Positions 23,111 through 32,464 of a stretch of DNA of 64,000 bases are shown piece after piece. The notes beneath the pieces were generated by a model. The model was given only the letters and a program-made list of their open reading frames with translations. It had not been told where the DNA came from and searched no databases. Position numbers and translations under genes: made by a program. This DNA comes from Myrmaecium sp. VS I D KN 1 (lineage: Eukaryota; Ascomycota; Dothideomycetes; Valsariales; Valsariaceae). The stretch's first letter is position 1. Each line of letters opens with the position of its first letter. The stretch lies in assembly GCA_019775845.1 (NCBI GenBank), contig JADQAV010000031.1, positions 248,138 through 312,137 of the forward strand, in the 5' to 3' direction.

Positions 23111-23507
23111 ATGTCTTCCGTCCGCCTCTTCCGCCCGCTCGCCCGCGCTGTTCAGCGCCAGCCTGCCGCCATTGCGCGCCCCGCCATGGCTGCCTTCATG
23201 AGCACTCGCCCCACCAAGATCGAGGTCCCCTCCATCCAGCAGGTCAAGGCCAAGCAGGCGCCGAAGACCCAGCTTATGGACAAGCTGGTGCGTTAGCAGC
23301 CGATCTCCGGGACTCGTTGCGGAAGCTGATATTCGTTCCTAGAGCATCCTCCAAGCCGGCATGCCCCAGCTCGTCCCCTTCTTCTGGGTCAACGAGGTCT
23401 CGTACGCTTTCGTCATCCTGCCGACCCTCATCTACCTCTGCTCCAAGTACTTCCTCCCCCAGACCCTCCGTACCCGGATGGCCCGCCTTTTCATCAGCAA
23501 GCTATAA
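23111..23507 (+). CDS. ATP8: ATP synthase F0 subunit 8, nuclear-encoded with a mitochondrial presequence
   Basis: Membrane subunit 8 (A6L) of the mitochondrial F1Fo-ATP synthase peripheral stalk, a protein normally encoded by fungal mtDNA. Two exons, 23111..23287 and 23343..23507 (55-nt intron), encode 113 residues. The last 48 residues are a complete ATP8. They begin MPQLVPFFWVNEVSYAF, cross the membrane once (VSYAFVILPTLIYLCSKYF) and end LRTRMARLFISKL. This is the same length and the same MPQLVPF...FISKL framing as mitochondrial fungal ATP8. The first 65 residues form a presequence rich in Arg, Ala and Ser (MSSVRLFRPLARAVQRQPAA) plus a linker. The intron lies just before SILQAG-M, so the old initiator Met survives inside the protein. 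Nuclear codon use shows this is a functional transfer, not a recent mtDNA fragment. Confidence 0.9.
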
Positions 23508-26335: not shown

Positions 26336-28975
26336 ATGATTCCCATCCTGCGCCGGTCAGGCCATATAACACGATTATCGAAGAGCGCCCTTGAGGCTAC
26401 CTCCAGGCCTGCACTGCTCGCTAGAGGACCCGCGATAGCCCTTCGACATCGTTACCTTCAACCGCATACCAGAGGCTACTCTAGCGCACCGCCGGAGGAC
26501 TCGCAGTCATCGAAGGAAAGGAAAGATGGCCAACAGGACAAGGATCGCGCGGGGGGCAAGGAACCGATAAAGGACCAACGGAAGAAAGAGGATGGCAAGC
26601 CAAGTGGAAACCCCCGGCTCACGACGGAGGAGGCGCGGGCATTGGACGAGCTTGTGAGGATGGCTAAGGCCGAGATGCCTAGGTTCCTCACCAAGGATAT
26701 CGAAGCTGTGTGCAACGAGATCAAAGAGCATGGTGTGCCGCCGGAGTTCATCGAGATTCGTGACATCATCAAAAAGTCCGAGGGCATCCTGGATGTAGCG
26801 ACAGCCACGCGCCTTATCCGCCTGACACGAAAAGCTGCCTGGACCGTTGCTGAGAAGATGGCGGAGGACGAAAAAGCGGACTCATCAAGTCCGCAACAGA
26901 AAGCAGGCGCCCATGATCCGGGCCCTGGGAAGGAGGGCGATGGCAAATCCAAGAAGAGTAAAAGCAAGGGCTCCTCGAACATGCCGGAATTCCCGCAAAT
27001 GGACCTCACGATGTTGATCCTCTCCTTGTTGACTTTCTACTCGCTTTGGCGTTTGCTCAACCCGGGACAGGAATCTAGGGAGATCACTTTCCAGGAGTTC
27101 CGATCGAAGTTCCTGGACAAGGGCTTGGTGGAAAAGATTGTGGTTCTCAACCAGTCCAGGGCACGCGTCTATCTACACCGCGATGCTGTGGCATCCATGT
27201 ATCCGGATTCGCCCGCTGCTAACGGCAGTTTCTACTACTACTTCACAATTGGTTCTGTTGAGTCATTCGAACGGAGATTGGACGACGCCCAAAACGAACT
27301 AGGTATCCCGTCTTCTCAACGGATACCTGTCTCCTACCAGAACGAAATATCCTGGTTCGCCACCATACTCTCTTTCGGCCCTACCCTTCTGTTCATTGGT
27401 GCTATCTTCTGGCTTTCGAGACGAGCTGCAGCAAGCGGAGGTGGTCAAAGTGGCATCTTTGGTATGGGTCGCAGTCGCGCAAAGAAGTTCAACCACGAAA
27501 CGGATATCAAGGTCAAGTTCTCGGACGTTGCTGGTATGGATGAGGCGAAGCTGGAGATCATGGAATTCGTCAGCTTCCTCAAGGAGCCAGATGTTTACCA
27601 GAAGTTGGGCGCTAAGATCCCACGAGGTGCCATTCTGTCCGGACCCCCGGGTACGGGAAAGACGCTCCTTGCCAAGGCCACGGCCGGCGAGTCCGGTGTT
27701 CCGTTCTTCAGCGTGTCTGGTTCCGAATTCGTGGAGATGTTTGTTGGTGTAGGTCCTTCGAGAGTACGCGATCTTTTCGCCACTGCACGCAAGAATACCC
27801 CCTGTATCATCTTCATTGACGAGATCGATGCTATCGGAAAGTCGCGATCCAAGCAGAACTTCGGCGGCAACGACGAAAGAGAGAGCACCTTGAACCAGAT
27901 TCTTACTGAGATGGACGGATTCAATACGACAGAGCAGGTTGTAGTCCTTGCCGGTACTAACCGACCGGATATCCTTGACAAAGCGCTCCTTCGCCCAGGT
28001 CGGTTTGATAGGCATATCTCCATTGACGCACCGACCATGGACGGAAGGAAACAAATTTTTGCCGTTCACCTCAAGAAGATCGTCACTCACGAGGACATAG
28101 AATACCTGCAAGGACGACTTGCAGCTCTCACTCCCGGCTTCTCCGGTGCTGACATCGCTAACTGTGTTAACGAAGCGGCACTCATCGCTGCCCGACACAA
28201 GGCCGATAGTGTTACCATGGAGCATTTTGAACAAGCTATCGAGCGGGTTATCGGTGGTCTGGAGAAGAAGTCGTTGGTCCTTTCGCCAGAGGAGAAGCGG
28301 ACCGTCGCGTACCACGAAGCCGGGCATGCTATCTGCGGCTGGTACTTCAAGTATGCGGACCCGCTTCTCAAGGTGTCTATCATTCCCCGTGGACAGGGTG
28401 CCCTGGGCTATGCCCAATACCTTCCAGCCGGCGACACGTATCTGATGAACGTTAACCAGCTCATGGATCGAATGGCGATGACTCTGGGTGGACGAGTGTC
28501 GGAGGAGCTTCACTTCGATACCGTCACCTCTGGTGCTTCTGATGACTTCCGCAAGGTTACCAAGATGGCCAGCGCCATGGTGACCAAGTGGGGCATGACG
28601 AAGAAGATTGGCTTCGTCTATTACGAGGACGACAACGGGCAACAGATCCAGAAGCCGTTCTCGGAGGATACGGCCAAGAACATCGACCTCGAGGTCAAGC
28701 GTATCGTGGACGAGGCCTACAAGCAGTGCAAAGACCTGCTGACCGAAAAGAAGGCCGAGGTTGGCATCGTTGCCGAAGAGCTGCTGAAGAAGGAGATGCT
28801 GTCCCGGGACGACATGGTGAGACTCCTCGGCCCGCGACCGTTCGAGGAGAAGGGCGACTTCCACAAGTACTTCGGTAGCAAAGGAGACCGGGAAGGTTCC
28901 GATCAAGGCCTGGGACAGGAAGGGCCTTCGGGCAAGAAAGACAGCGGAGATGTGCCGCCTGCCCCGGCGATATGA
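26336..28975 (+). CDS. YTA12: Mitochondrial m-AAA protease subunit (Yta12/Afg3 family)
   Basis: ATP-dependent zinc metalloprotease of the mitochondrial inner membrane, facing the matrix. It degrades unassembled membrane proteins and matures ribosomal protein MrpL32. Single exon, 879 residues. The order is: a presequence ([20 protein letters not shown]), a charged matrix or linker region, a first membrane segment ([18 protein letters not shown]), an intermembrane FtsH-extracellular domain, a second membrane segment ([20 protein letters not shown]), then the AAA module. Its parts are Walker A GPPGTGKT, Walker [11 protein letters not shown], the pore-loop region FVEMFVGVG and the second-region-of-homology arginines RPGRFDR. 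The zinc site HEAGH precedes [30 protein letters not shown] near the end is typical. [10 protein letters not shown] and [10 protein letters not shown] look closer to Yta12 than Yta10, but the paralogue call is tentative. Confidence 0.95.
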
Positions 28976-29693: not shown

Positions 29694-32464
29694 TCACCGT
29701 ATTTGCACTCCTTCCAGCACGTCCAGGAGGCCCCATGCCCGCTTGACCAGGGCCTGTCTTTGCTCCTTCCGCTGCTTCAACGCGGCGCGTGGCTTCAGAC
29801 CTGGCTGGGTGTCGCCGTCGCCCAGGACGATGACCTCCATGGCCCGACTGCCCAAGCTGCCCTCCTCCAGGCCGCGGACGACGACCCTGGCCTCGCCCGG
29901 GGCGCCGCCGAGGTCCGGCAGGTGGAACTGGACGTCCTGCTTGCCGCGGACACCGCTGAACTCGTATGTGACCAGCTCTTCGTGCGCGCGCTCCCACTGC
30001 GAACCGGCCAGGGCGGCGGGCTTGGGCGCGCCGCTGCTGAGCCGGATGACGGGCTTGGGGATCTTGAGGTCGATGAAGCGGGGCGCGCGGAGGCGGCCTT
30101 TCTTCGAGATGGTTTGCTGGATCGCGCCGACGTACTCGTCGATCTGGGGATGGGCGCCGGTGGTCAGGGTGGCGGCAGGCGAATGGAGGGTTTTGACCTC
30201 GTTGAACATGATGTCCGCCACCTTCTCGGGAAGCAGAGCGTAGGCAGTCCGCGTTTTGTAGTAGAGTGTCATTCCCGCGAATGAGAGATTACCGTCGCCG
30301 CCCTCCGGGACCGCGAAGTCCATGGAAATCTGTGGAAAGATTGTGGGCGGCTGATCACTCGTAAAAGGGGTAGCACGGAGCATGAACGATAGCGTCTGGG
30401 TCGTTGTCGGTGCCGAGGAAGCCATGTTGGATATGCGCGAAAGGAAAGCAGGGAGCCTTGGGACGTTGGCGCTGAAGCGCCAGTGCTGAGTGAAAGTCTT
30501 TGTTTGCGGGAGTCGGAACGACATGGTGTTCAGCCCTTCCAGAGTCGGTTGGAGGACATGTCCTAAACGAGCCGATTCCTCGCTGCGAGCGATGTACTGC
30601 CAGTACGAGTGACTCGGAGAAGTCTCCTCCCGTGCGATTTTCTCAAAAGAATTCCGATATAATGTTGAACCATCCAGAAAGCGGCAGGCTTCCGCCTGAA
30701 GTTTAGCTGAAACCGAATCTGGTTCTTCATTACGGTTTTTTTCAGGTGCACGTTCCGCGCGCGACGGGGAAGAGCTGATGTTCTCCAATCCATCGAAAGC
30801 ATCCCTTTCCACCTGCTGTGTTTGGGGGTTAGAGGCACTTGGTGGCTCAAAGAAAGCCGAGTACTCCTCCGACTCCTCCTCTTCAGGGTTCGACTGTTTC
30901 CATCGAATTCGTTTGATGGGCAAGGTCCATCTGCCCATCGGTCGCTTGCGGTCTGCATGTCGTAAGCTCGGGGTGGGCCCTACAGGATGGAGGACCCCAA
31001 AGTGGGCAGTCTTCTCATCATCCAGTATTGCCACTGGCGTGCTATCGCTCGGCTGAGGAAGCATCGACATGAGGGCCCGCAGCGCGTCTTCCGAATCCTC
31101 CTTGTGCATACTGCGAATCCGGATCTGCTGTCATTAGCCCGCAGTCACTCCGCAGTCGTAGCGAGTGGATATTGCGACGAGCAAGATAACATACCTGCTG
31201 TTCCTTTTCATCTAAGTCAATAGACGCTCCGCTTAGTTCGGACGCTGTGAGAATGTCGCTCTCATCCCACGGCAAGTTTGCAGATTTCCTTCCGGTCATT
31301 TCATTAGGATTGTTCCCCATGAGCTTCCAGAAGGGTGCAAGTTTTATGTCCATCGCCGCAGATTCTTGTATGGCGCCCACAATATCCTTCACGGCGTATT
31401 CAGCTTTGCTTTTACTGGCACGGATGCGAATGGTCTTCTTGGGCCACGTAACTTCAATATCAACCTTCCGATCTCGCCCAATATTGTTTAGGATGGAGTT
31501 CGAGCCTGCATCCAGTCCATTAACATCCACACAAAGACGCGAAGGCGGAATACTCACGACCACTGTGCAGCCATCTCATTTGCCAATCCGTAAGTTGTAG
31601 TTCGAGCTCCCCGGGGCTCTCTACTTCTTCTTGAATTTCTACACCCCACACTCTCCTCAGTATGCACTCGATGAGGTGTCGTTTCCCTGACCTCGCCCCG
31701 ATTACAGCGCCCCGGAGCGGAGCGACGGGAGCAAGTTTCTGACGGACCGGCGTTGACCCCGGCCTCCAGCCGCTCGTGCTAATCCCAAGGTCGGCATTCA
31801 CATCCACAAGGATAGGACCGACCTCTCCCCCAACTTGGCCTCCCTGTGTTTGGATATATTGTTTTAGCTGGGAACTCGTGAAACCTCTCTCCAGCGTCTT
31901 TCCCAAGCTCGCATACTCCTTCCGGTCCAGCAATGGCCGCTTGCCGTTCGGGTCAGTTTTCGGTCTGCAATTCTCAATCTGCCGAAATACTTCCAACTCC
32001 TTTGGGGTCCGCTTCTCGCTCGTAAGAGCCTCAAGAAGGTCATCTTCCGTTGGAGCTTTTCGGTCATTGCTGCGAGGAATGGCGGAGACGGGCTGCTTTG
32101 GCTTCACCCATTCCTGTGTTTCGCGGAGGACCAAGACCTCTGCGGGCTTTCCCAAGACCCCCCGCCCGAGAGGTTCGCCTGTGGCAAGGAGCCGCTGCCC
32201 AGCTGCACCGGTGACCCGCGGGCCTCTCAAGATCCGTTTCCGCGTCACCTTCGGGGCCGCTTCTATCGGCAGATCGGCAGTTTCTGCATACTTGTCCGGC
32301 CCTGTGTCTGAAGAGTCTGGGAAGGAAGCGAAAGAAAGTGATCTGGCGCAAGGCGAAGAACCGAAGGACGGCGAAATTCGAGCGTTGTTACGGCGCGAGA
32401 GAGAAAGACGTACACGGCAGCGGAGACATACTGATGCTCCAACTGATGTACGGGTTACAAGCAT
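29694..32464 (-). CDS. SLS1: Mitochondrial inner-membrane translation regulator Sls1
   Basis: Peripheral inner-membrane protein that couples mitochondrial transcription and translation and is needed for respiratory-chain assembly. Three exons, 31558..32464, 31195..31505 and 29694..31124 (introns of 52 and 70 nt), give 882 residues. The N-terminus is a presequence (RTSVGASVCLRCRVRLSLSR). Then come the family's WQMRWLHSGRSNSILNNIGR junction, KVDIEVTWPKKTIRIRASKS and YAVKDIVGAIQES, matching fungal Sls1. The C-terminal half includes SYWQYIARSEESARLGHVLQ and TFTQHWRFSANVPRLPAFLS, also Sls1-like. The second intron ends cagcag, so one extra Gln may be inserted depending on which AG is used. The upstream region, shared with BBP/SF1, contains a RIP-mutated repeat relic. 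Confidence 0.9.

What the first reader, a model, noticed from the sequence alone, without database searches (positions are those of the whole stretch)
23111..23507. ATP synthase subunit 8 encoded in the nucleus with an acquired presequence
The last 48 residues are a full fungal ATP8 (MPQLVPF start, FISKL end), a protein nearly always encoded by mtDNA. It is preceded by a 65-residue Arg/Ala-rich presequence and linker, has nuclear codon use, and an intron sits six codons before the retained original initiator Met. This reads as a completed mitochondrion-to-nucleus transfer in which targeting sequence and mature part met near an intron. The membrane span contains polar residues (Asn, Glu, Ser), as expected where import selects for lower hydrophobicity. 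Loss of atp8 from mtDNA is known in some Dothideomycetes, but the donor of the presequence is not.
Basis: partly seen in the sequence, partly recalled or inferred. Interest (0 to 1): 0.75.

Follow-up and report, generated by a model that had tools for sequence, protein, structure and literature searches.

The report
Nuclear gene for ATP synthase subunit 8
This fungus carries the gene for a small ATP synthase part in its nucleus instead of its mitochondrial DNA, as many related fungi do; what seems new is a proline in the membrane span that nearly every nuclear copy examined shares and no mitochondrial copy examined has.

Summary
Window 23111-23507 (+) encodes a 113-residue ATP synthase subunit 8: a 59-residue presequence/linker exon, a 55-base GT-AG intron, six junction codons, then a complete 48-residue fungal ATP8 (PF05933, E 6.6e-21).

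A transfer to the nucleus is supported. PF05933 matches this genome only here, and the readable mtDNA (contigs C50 and C3) gives no atp8 with a profile that finds 7 of 7 mtDNA control copies. The mtDNA is only partly readable, so loss is likely, not proven.

The gene is not special to this organism. Dothideomycete relatives share its presequence, and 11 relatives' unspliced frames point to the same intron, same codon and phase. Nuclear atp8 of Stemphylium lycopersici was published in 2017 (PMC5626475). This is a new member of a known kind.

One claim fails: the span's Asn11 and Ser28 occur in 8 of 8 mtDNA copies and Glu12 in 4 of 8. The consistent difference is a mid-span proline: 97 of 99 distinct nuclear sequences, 0 of 8 mtDNA copies. 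It could favour full import and Oxa1 insertion; but yeast Atp8 without it works from the nucleus. The presequence donor stays unknown.

The parts
23111..23287 (+). exon 1: 59 codons, mitochondrial presequence (about residues 1-32) and linker
   Evidence: open frame to a GT donor; 6 basic and 0 acidic residues in 1-34, amphipathic; N-terminus conserved in relatives. The cleavage point is not determined
23288..23342 (+). spliceosomal-type intron, 55 bp, GT-AG, phase 0, six codons before the ATP8 Met
   Evidence: same place and phase indicated by 11 relatives whose unspliced frames read through it
23343..23360 (+). six junction codons (SILQAG) between intron and ATP8 Met
   Evidence: in 67 distinct relatives' rows position -1 is Ala (60) or Gly (7) and -4 is Leu in 59
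23361..23504 (+). 48-codon ATP8 proper, MPQLVPF...FISKL
   Evidence: Pfam PF05933 1-48/48, E 6.6e-21; yeast Atp8 in the PDB, E 4.2e-11
23421..23423 (+). codon CCG for Pro86 (mature position 21), middle of the membrane span
   Evidence: proline in 97 of 99 distinct nuclear-type sequences, 0 of 8 mtDNA-encoded
23505..23507 (+). stop codon TAA

Best explanation
This is the working, nucleus-encoded ATP synthase subunit 8 of a dothideomycete-type fungus, orthologous to the nuclear ATP8 genes of other Dothideomycetes and descended with them from one old transfer of atp8 from mtDNA. The transferred copy kept its own initiator Met and gained, upstream, a presequence exon, a phase-0 intron and six junction codons. 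Shown: gene structure, homology, shared presequence, single copy in the assembly, no atp8 in the readable mtDNA. Inferred: the protein is made in the cytosol, taken through TOM and TIM23 by its N-terminal presequence and trimmed by the matrix processing peptidase, probably near the F-M-S-T-R stretch at residues 29-33. Because Atp8 sits with its N-terminus in the intermembrane space and C-terminus in the matrix (recalled), it should go fully into the matrix first and be inserted by Oxa1 (conservative sorting), not be stopped in TIM23. It then joins the F0 part beside subunit 6.
For: Complete ATP8 domain. Relatives align over the whole precursor, presequence included: best P0001 Trichodelitschia bisporula, 58% identity over 100%. 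In 11 relatives the unspliced frame reads V (GTN) after exon 1 and ends in Q (CAG) exactly six residues before the Met; of 52 hits without a recognised presequence, 29 have Q at -7, 18 are too short to tell, 5 have M or L. One PF05933 match in the genome; code-4 scan of readable mtDNA, best hit 5.6 bits, E 1.1, against 63.7-77.0 bits for 7 of 7 mtDNA controls and 25.7-32.0 bits for either half of yeast Atp8. Nuclear and mtDNA copies fall on two sides of one branch, 99/87. Published precedent in Stemphylium lycopersici with predicted targeting peptides (PMC5626475, section 13).
Against: No transcript or protein evidence. The mtDNA is only partly readable: part of C50 is N, and atp6, cox3 and large-subunit rRNA were not found, so an mtDNA atp8 beside atp6 could be out of sight. 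One transfer rests on a tree of 47 columns whose bootstrap had not settled and on shared presequence and intron. P0104, from a Pyrenula MAG classed as Eurotiomycetes, has the same presequence family, which fits a single dothideomycete transfer only if that MAG is misassigned, or by gene transfer between fungi.
Confidence: 0.85

Rival explanations
1. Dual possession: the nuclear gene works, but an mtDNA atp8 is also still present in this fungus, in the part that could not be read.
For: Neither atp6 nor cox3 was found in the assembly and part of C50 is N. atp8 and atp6 are neighbours in Mycosphaerellaceae mtDNA (PMC7999263, passages).
Against: No PF05933 match elsewhere in the genome and none in readable mtDNA. 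Related Pleosporales lack atp8 in complete mtDNA (PMC5626475; PMC7225605, passages).
Confidence: 0.1
2. A decaying or silent nuclear copy (a mitochondrial DNA fragment with a chance frame).
For: No expression data here.
Against: Intact frame, nuclear codon use with GC3 0.88, all 26 columns that were invariant in alignment A1 kept by the window, which is one of its rows, conserved presequence and intron, and no mtDNA-like DNA in the window (blastn against readable mtDNA, no hit).
Confidence: 0.02
3. Several independent transfers gave similar nuclear ATP8 genes in different dothideomycete orders.
For: One phylogeny places Capnodiales, whose mtDNA keeps atp8, inside the spread of orders with nuclear copies: Venturiales, then Capnodiales, then Botryosphaeriales with Pleosporales (PMC7225605, passages; PMC7999263).
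Against: The same presequence start (M-[SN]-x-x-R-[LF]-[LF]-R-P-[LF]-A-R-A) and the same intron place and phase in Pleosporales-like, Venturiales-like and Coniosporium-like rows. Coexistence of both copies with differential loss explains the pattern more simply.
Confidence: 0.05

Closest known systems
Nuclear atp8 of Stemphylium lycopersici (TW65_04673; PMC5626475, section 13 read)
   Same: Nuclear ATP8 with an N-terminal extension predicted as a targeting peptide; atp9 nuclear as well; mtDNA lacks atp8.
   Different: Different order (Pleosporales). The section describes neither the intron, nor the presequence's spread, nor the span proline. I did not see its sequence (supplement not held).
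Nuclear ATP8 of Trichodelitschia bisporula (P0001) and Venturia inaequalis (P0002)
   Same: 58% and 55% identity over 100% of the precursor; same presequence type and six-residue junction.
   Different: Species and linker; deposited as hypothetical protein / ATP synthase protein 8.
mtDNA-encoded Atp8 of yeast and other fungi (6b2z; L032, L033, L036-L040)
   Same: 48-residue core with MPQLVPF start, Asn11 and Ser28.
   Different: No presequence or nuclear intron, AT-rich codons, no proline at position 21 in 8 of 8.
Nuclear ATP9 of Podospora anserina and its relocation into yeast (PMC3420929, passages)
   Same: Natural transfer of a small F0 subunit; import linked to lower span hydrophobicity.
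   Different: Another subunit with two spans; the paper reports that yeast Atp8 itself needs only a targeting sequence and recoding.

Membership tests
Fungal ATP synthase protein 8 (PF05933) | full-length match above Pfam's cut-off | tested here: met
   74.7 bits against a 26.1 cut-off, positions 1-48/48
Fungal ATP synthase protein 8 (PF05933) | assembly into ATP synthase | not testable with these tools
   needs proteomics or complementation
Nuclear-encoded ATP8 of Dothideomycetes | gene in the nuclear genome with nuclear codon use | tested here: met
   inside contig C23 beside ordinary nuclear genes, GC3 0.88
Nuclear-encoded ATP8 of Dothideomycetes | homologous presequence | tested here: met
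   relatives align through the presequence
Nuclear-encoded ATP8 of Dothideomycetes | phase-0 intron six codons before the ATP8 Met | tested here: met
   window DNA; in relatives inferred from 11 read-through protein frames, their DNA not seen
Nuclear-encoded ATP8 of Dothideomycetes | atp8 absent from mtDNA | tested here: inconclusive
   absent from readable C50 and C3; the mtDNA is incomplete here
Conservatively sorted (Oxa1-dependent) inner membrane protein | matrix intermediate and Oxa1 dependence | not testable with these tools
   inferred from recalled topology; less hydrophobic, proline-rich spans are typical of this route (PMC11452304, passages)

The most novel reading that the evidence does not exclude
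After the move to the nucleus, a proline was fixed in the middle of Atp8's only membrane span because it keeps TIM23 from stopping the protein there, so that it is fully imported and then inserted the right way round by Oxa1. It would be a one-residue import adaptation that records the change of genome, kept through a class and lost again in one branch (P0104 and P0127).
Probability: 0.3. Interest if true: 0.55.

Novelty: new member of a known kind. Interest (0 to 1): 0.35.

Why it matters
A recent review counts atp8 among the genes rarely transferred to the nucleus (fewer than 6 transfers; PMC10809612, passages). This gene and its relatives give that transfer dated marks: one presequence, one intron place, six junction codons. 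If the span proline proves to be an import adaptation, it links a single residue to the route an inner-membrane protein takes, which can be tested directly in yeast.

Tried and rejected
Rejected: 'polar residues in the span show import selection' (mtDNA copies have them). Rejected: presequence copied from another gene still recognisable in this genome; exon 1 finds itself (E 6.4e-31) and one chance-level match (E 0.45, 29% identity). The nuclear ATP9 found here has a presequence of its own that I could not match to this one by eye.

Led nowhere: PF00895, the animal-type ATP8 family, matched nothing, controls included. The protein search with the 48-residue core returned 11 nuclear-type hits and no recognisable mtDNA copies. 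Two repeat viral-contig scans with single mtDNA copies and one with alignment A4 gave the same two contigs. Taxonomic placement beyond 'dothideomycete type' was not attempted.

Results against my own reading: yeast Atp8, which has Ile at position 21 and a very hydrophobic span, works from the nucleus with only a targeting sequence and recoding (PMC3420929, passages), so proline is not needed for import. Two nuclear-type rows, P0104 and P0127, lack it. The mtDNA copy L032 (best 19-residue hydropathy 1.56) lies inside the nuclear range 1.35-2.04. The statistics (Fisher 1.4e-10; Mann-Whitney 3.2e-4 for best 19-residue hydropathy, 0.008 for mean span hydropathy without position 21) treat sequences of one descent as independent and overstate the case. 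The nuclear set was chosen by a profile that itself contains the proline, and only 120 of 1417 profile hits were listed. No Capnodiales mtDNA atp8 was available, so the proline could be older than the transfer.

Full report
What is there. The window holds an intact two-exon gene at 23111-23507 (+). Exon 1 (23111-23287) gives 59 residues, the intron (23288-23342, 55 bp, GT-AG, phase 0) follows, and exon 2 (23343-23507) gives six residues, SILQAG, then the 48 residues MPQLVPF...FISKL and TAA. The 48 residues are a complete fungal ATP8 (PF05933, 48 of 48 positions, E 6.6e-21; yeast Atp8 of 6b2z, E 4.2e-11). GC3 is 0.88 against 0.06-0.25 in seven mtDNA-encoded copies.

Is it the only copy? A PF05933 search of the 25.7-Mb assembly found one place, this gene. 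Mitochondrial DNA is present on contigs C50 (53,799 bp) and C3 (10,215 bp): cox1, cob, nad3 and nad5, nad1 and a further nad2 or nad4. My own ATP8 profile, run in six frames under code 4 at full sensitivity, gave nothing better than 5.6 bits, E 1.1. The same profile found 7 of 7 mtDNA control copies at 63.7-77.0 bits and either half of yeast Atp8 at 25.7-32.0 bits, so an atp8 in the readable part, even one split by an intron near its middle, should have shown. Limits: about a fifth of C50 reads N, and atp6, cox3 and large-subunit rRNA were not found. Loss of the mtDNA copy is therefore likely, not shown.

Relatives. The precursor finds 14 proteins, the best being Trichodelitschia bisporula (58% identity over the whole length; Phaeotrichales, Dothideomycetes) and Venturia inaequalis (55%). 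A profile search lists 120 of 1417 hits, among them named Pleosporales, Mytilinidiales and Botryosphaeriales (orders recalled from genus names), Bogoriella (Trypetheliales) and Coniosporium. That the window's fungus belongs to Dothideomycetes is inferred from these hits alone. Of the 127 proteins held from the three searches, 67 (and the window) made 68 full-length spliced rows, 67 of them distinct, with 47-89 residues before the Met. The presequence start is shared: Arg at positions 5, 8 and 12 in 53, 53 and 51 of the 67 distinct rows without any gap correction.

The intron is old. Eleven relatives are predicted from unspliced DNA and read through the intron: P0011, P0015, P0016, P0041, P0042, P0076, P0088, P0094, P0102, P0111 and P0119. 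In each, the residue after the end of exon 1 is V (GTN) and the last before the six junction residues is Q (CAG) (read by eye). Of 52 hits without a recognised presequence, 29 have Q at that place, 18 are too short, 4 have M and 1 has L. The rows include Pleosporales-like, Venturiales-like and Coniosporium-like sequences. I saw only proteins, so the intron's conservation is strong inference. The six junction residues are themselves constrained: Ala or Gly at -1 in 67 of 67, Leu at -4 in 59 of 67.

One transfer. A tree of 99 distinct nuclear-type cores and 8 mtDNA cores separates the two by one branch (99/87; 98% of 200 bootstrap trees), on 47 columns with an unsettled bootstrap. With shared presequence and intron, one transfer is the simplest reading. 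It has a puzzle: Mycosphaerellaceae mtDNA keeps atp8 next to atp6 (PMC7999263, passages), while one published phylogeny places Capnodiales between Venturiales and the Botryosphaeriales-Pleosporales group (PMC7225605, passages). Under that tree both copies must have coexisted for some time. I saw no Zymoseptoria, Zasmidium, Pseudocercospora or Sphaerulina among the listed hits, but names are cut and many rows have none.

The membrane span. I found seven mtDNA-encoded fungal copies, as contaminants in viral and bacterial collections, all AT-rich; an SPLxQF motif that I recall as atp6-like follows in 4 of 7, a weaker motif in 2, none in L033. With yeast that makes eight. Asn11 and Ser28 are in 8 of 8 and Glu12 in 4 of 8. 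What differs is position 21: proline in 126 of 128 nuclear-type rows, 97 of 99 distinct ones, and in 0 of 8 mtDNA copies, which have no proline anywhere in positions 8-31. In the window it is Pro86, the centre of the best-scoring 19-residue stretch. Nuclear spans are also somewhat less hydrophobic (best 19-residue mean 1.35-2.04, median 1.75, window 1.42; mtDNA 1.56-2.65), with overlap at L032. The two exceptions, P0104 and P0127, group together (100/90) inside the nuclear clade, which suggests loss rather than an early state.

How it probably works. The presequence is basic and amphipathic. Import through TOM and TIM23 and cleavage in the matrix are inferred. Atp8 lies N-out, C-in (recalled), so arrest of the span in TIM23 behind a matrix-facing presequence would leave it upside down; full import and insertion by Oxa1 is the likely route, as for nuclear-encoded Atp9 (PMC11452304, passages). 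That review says spans of such proteins are less hydrophobic and rich in proline, citing Meier et al. 2005, which is not held. The proline fits, but it is not required: yeast Atp8 without it works from the nucleus (PMC3420929, passages). A structural reason or plain descent from an unsampled mtDNA copy remains possible.

What is known. Nuclear atp8 and atp9 with predicted targeting peptides are published for Stemphylium lycopersici (PMC5626475, section 13), and loss of atp8 from mtDNA for several Pleosporales. A search for 'nuclear-encoded atp8' returned that paper alone. In the listings I saw no title or abstract about a proline in nuclear Atp8 or about this intron; I opened only passages of one paper, so this is weak evidence of absence. 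Nuclear ATP9 is here too, at G000 C24:138792-138977 (-), exons read by eye, and no PF00137 match fell on C50 or C3.

Verdict. A real, ordinary and well-kept nuclear ATP8: new member of a known kind. The proline and the shared intron are the parts worth a second look.

Noticed in passing
window 26336-28972 (+) and 29697-32464 (-): An FtsH-type AAA protease (FtsH_ext, AAA, Peptidase_M41) and an SLS1 gene (N and C domains in two frames) lie within 10 kb of ATP8; both families work at the mitochondrial inner membrane (recalled). Chance neighbourhood or conserved order was not tested.
   Followed up: partly
P0104 (MAG named Pyrenula ochraceoflavens): A nuclear-type ATP8 with the same presequence family from a MAG that NCBI classes in Eurotiomycetes; it lacks the span proline. 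Misassigned MAG or transfer between fungi.
   Followed up: partly
L036-L040 and L032-L033: AT-rich contigs with a fungal-type mtDNA atp8 sit in bacterial genome assemblies (Streptomyces, Fictibacillus, Atribacteria, Bacilli, Tolypothrix) and in IMG/VR: contamination.
   Followed up: partly
G000 C24:138792-138977 (-): Nuclear ATP9 (F-type c subunit) with its own presequence exon and an intron.
   Followed up: partly
G000 C50: mtDNA rich in LAGLIDADG reading frames and two group II intron matches.
   Followed up: no
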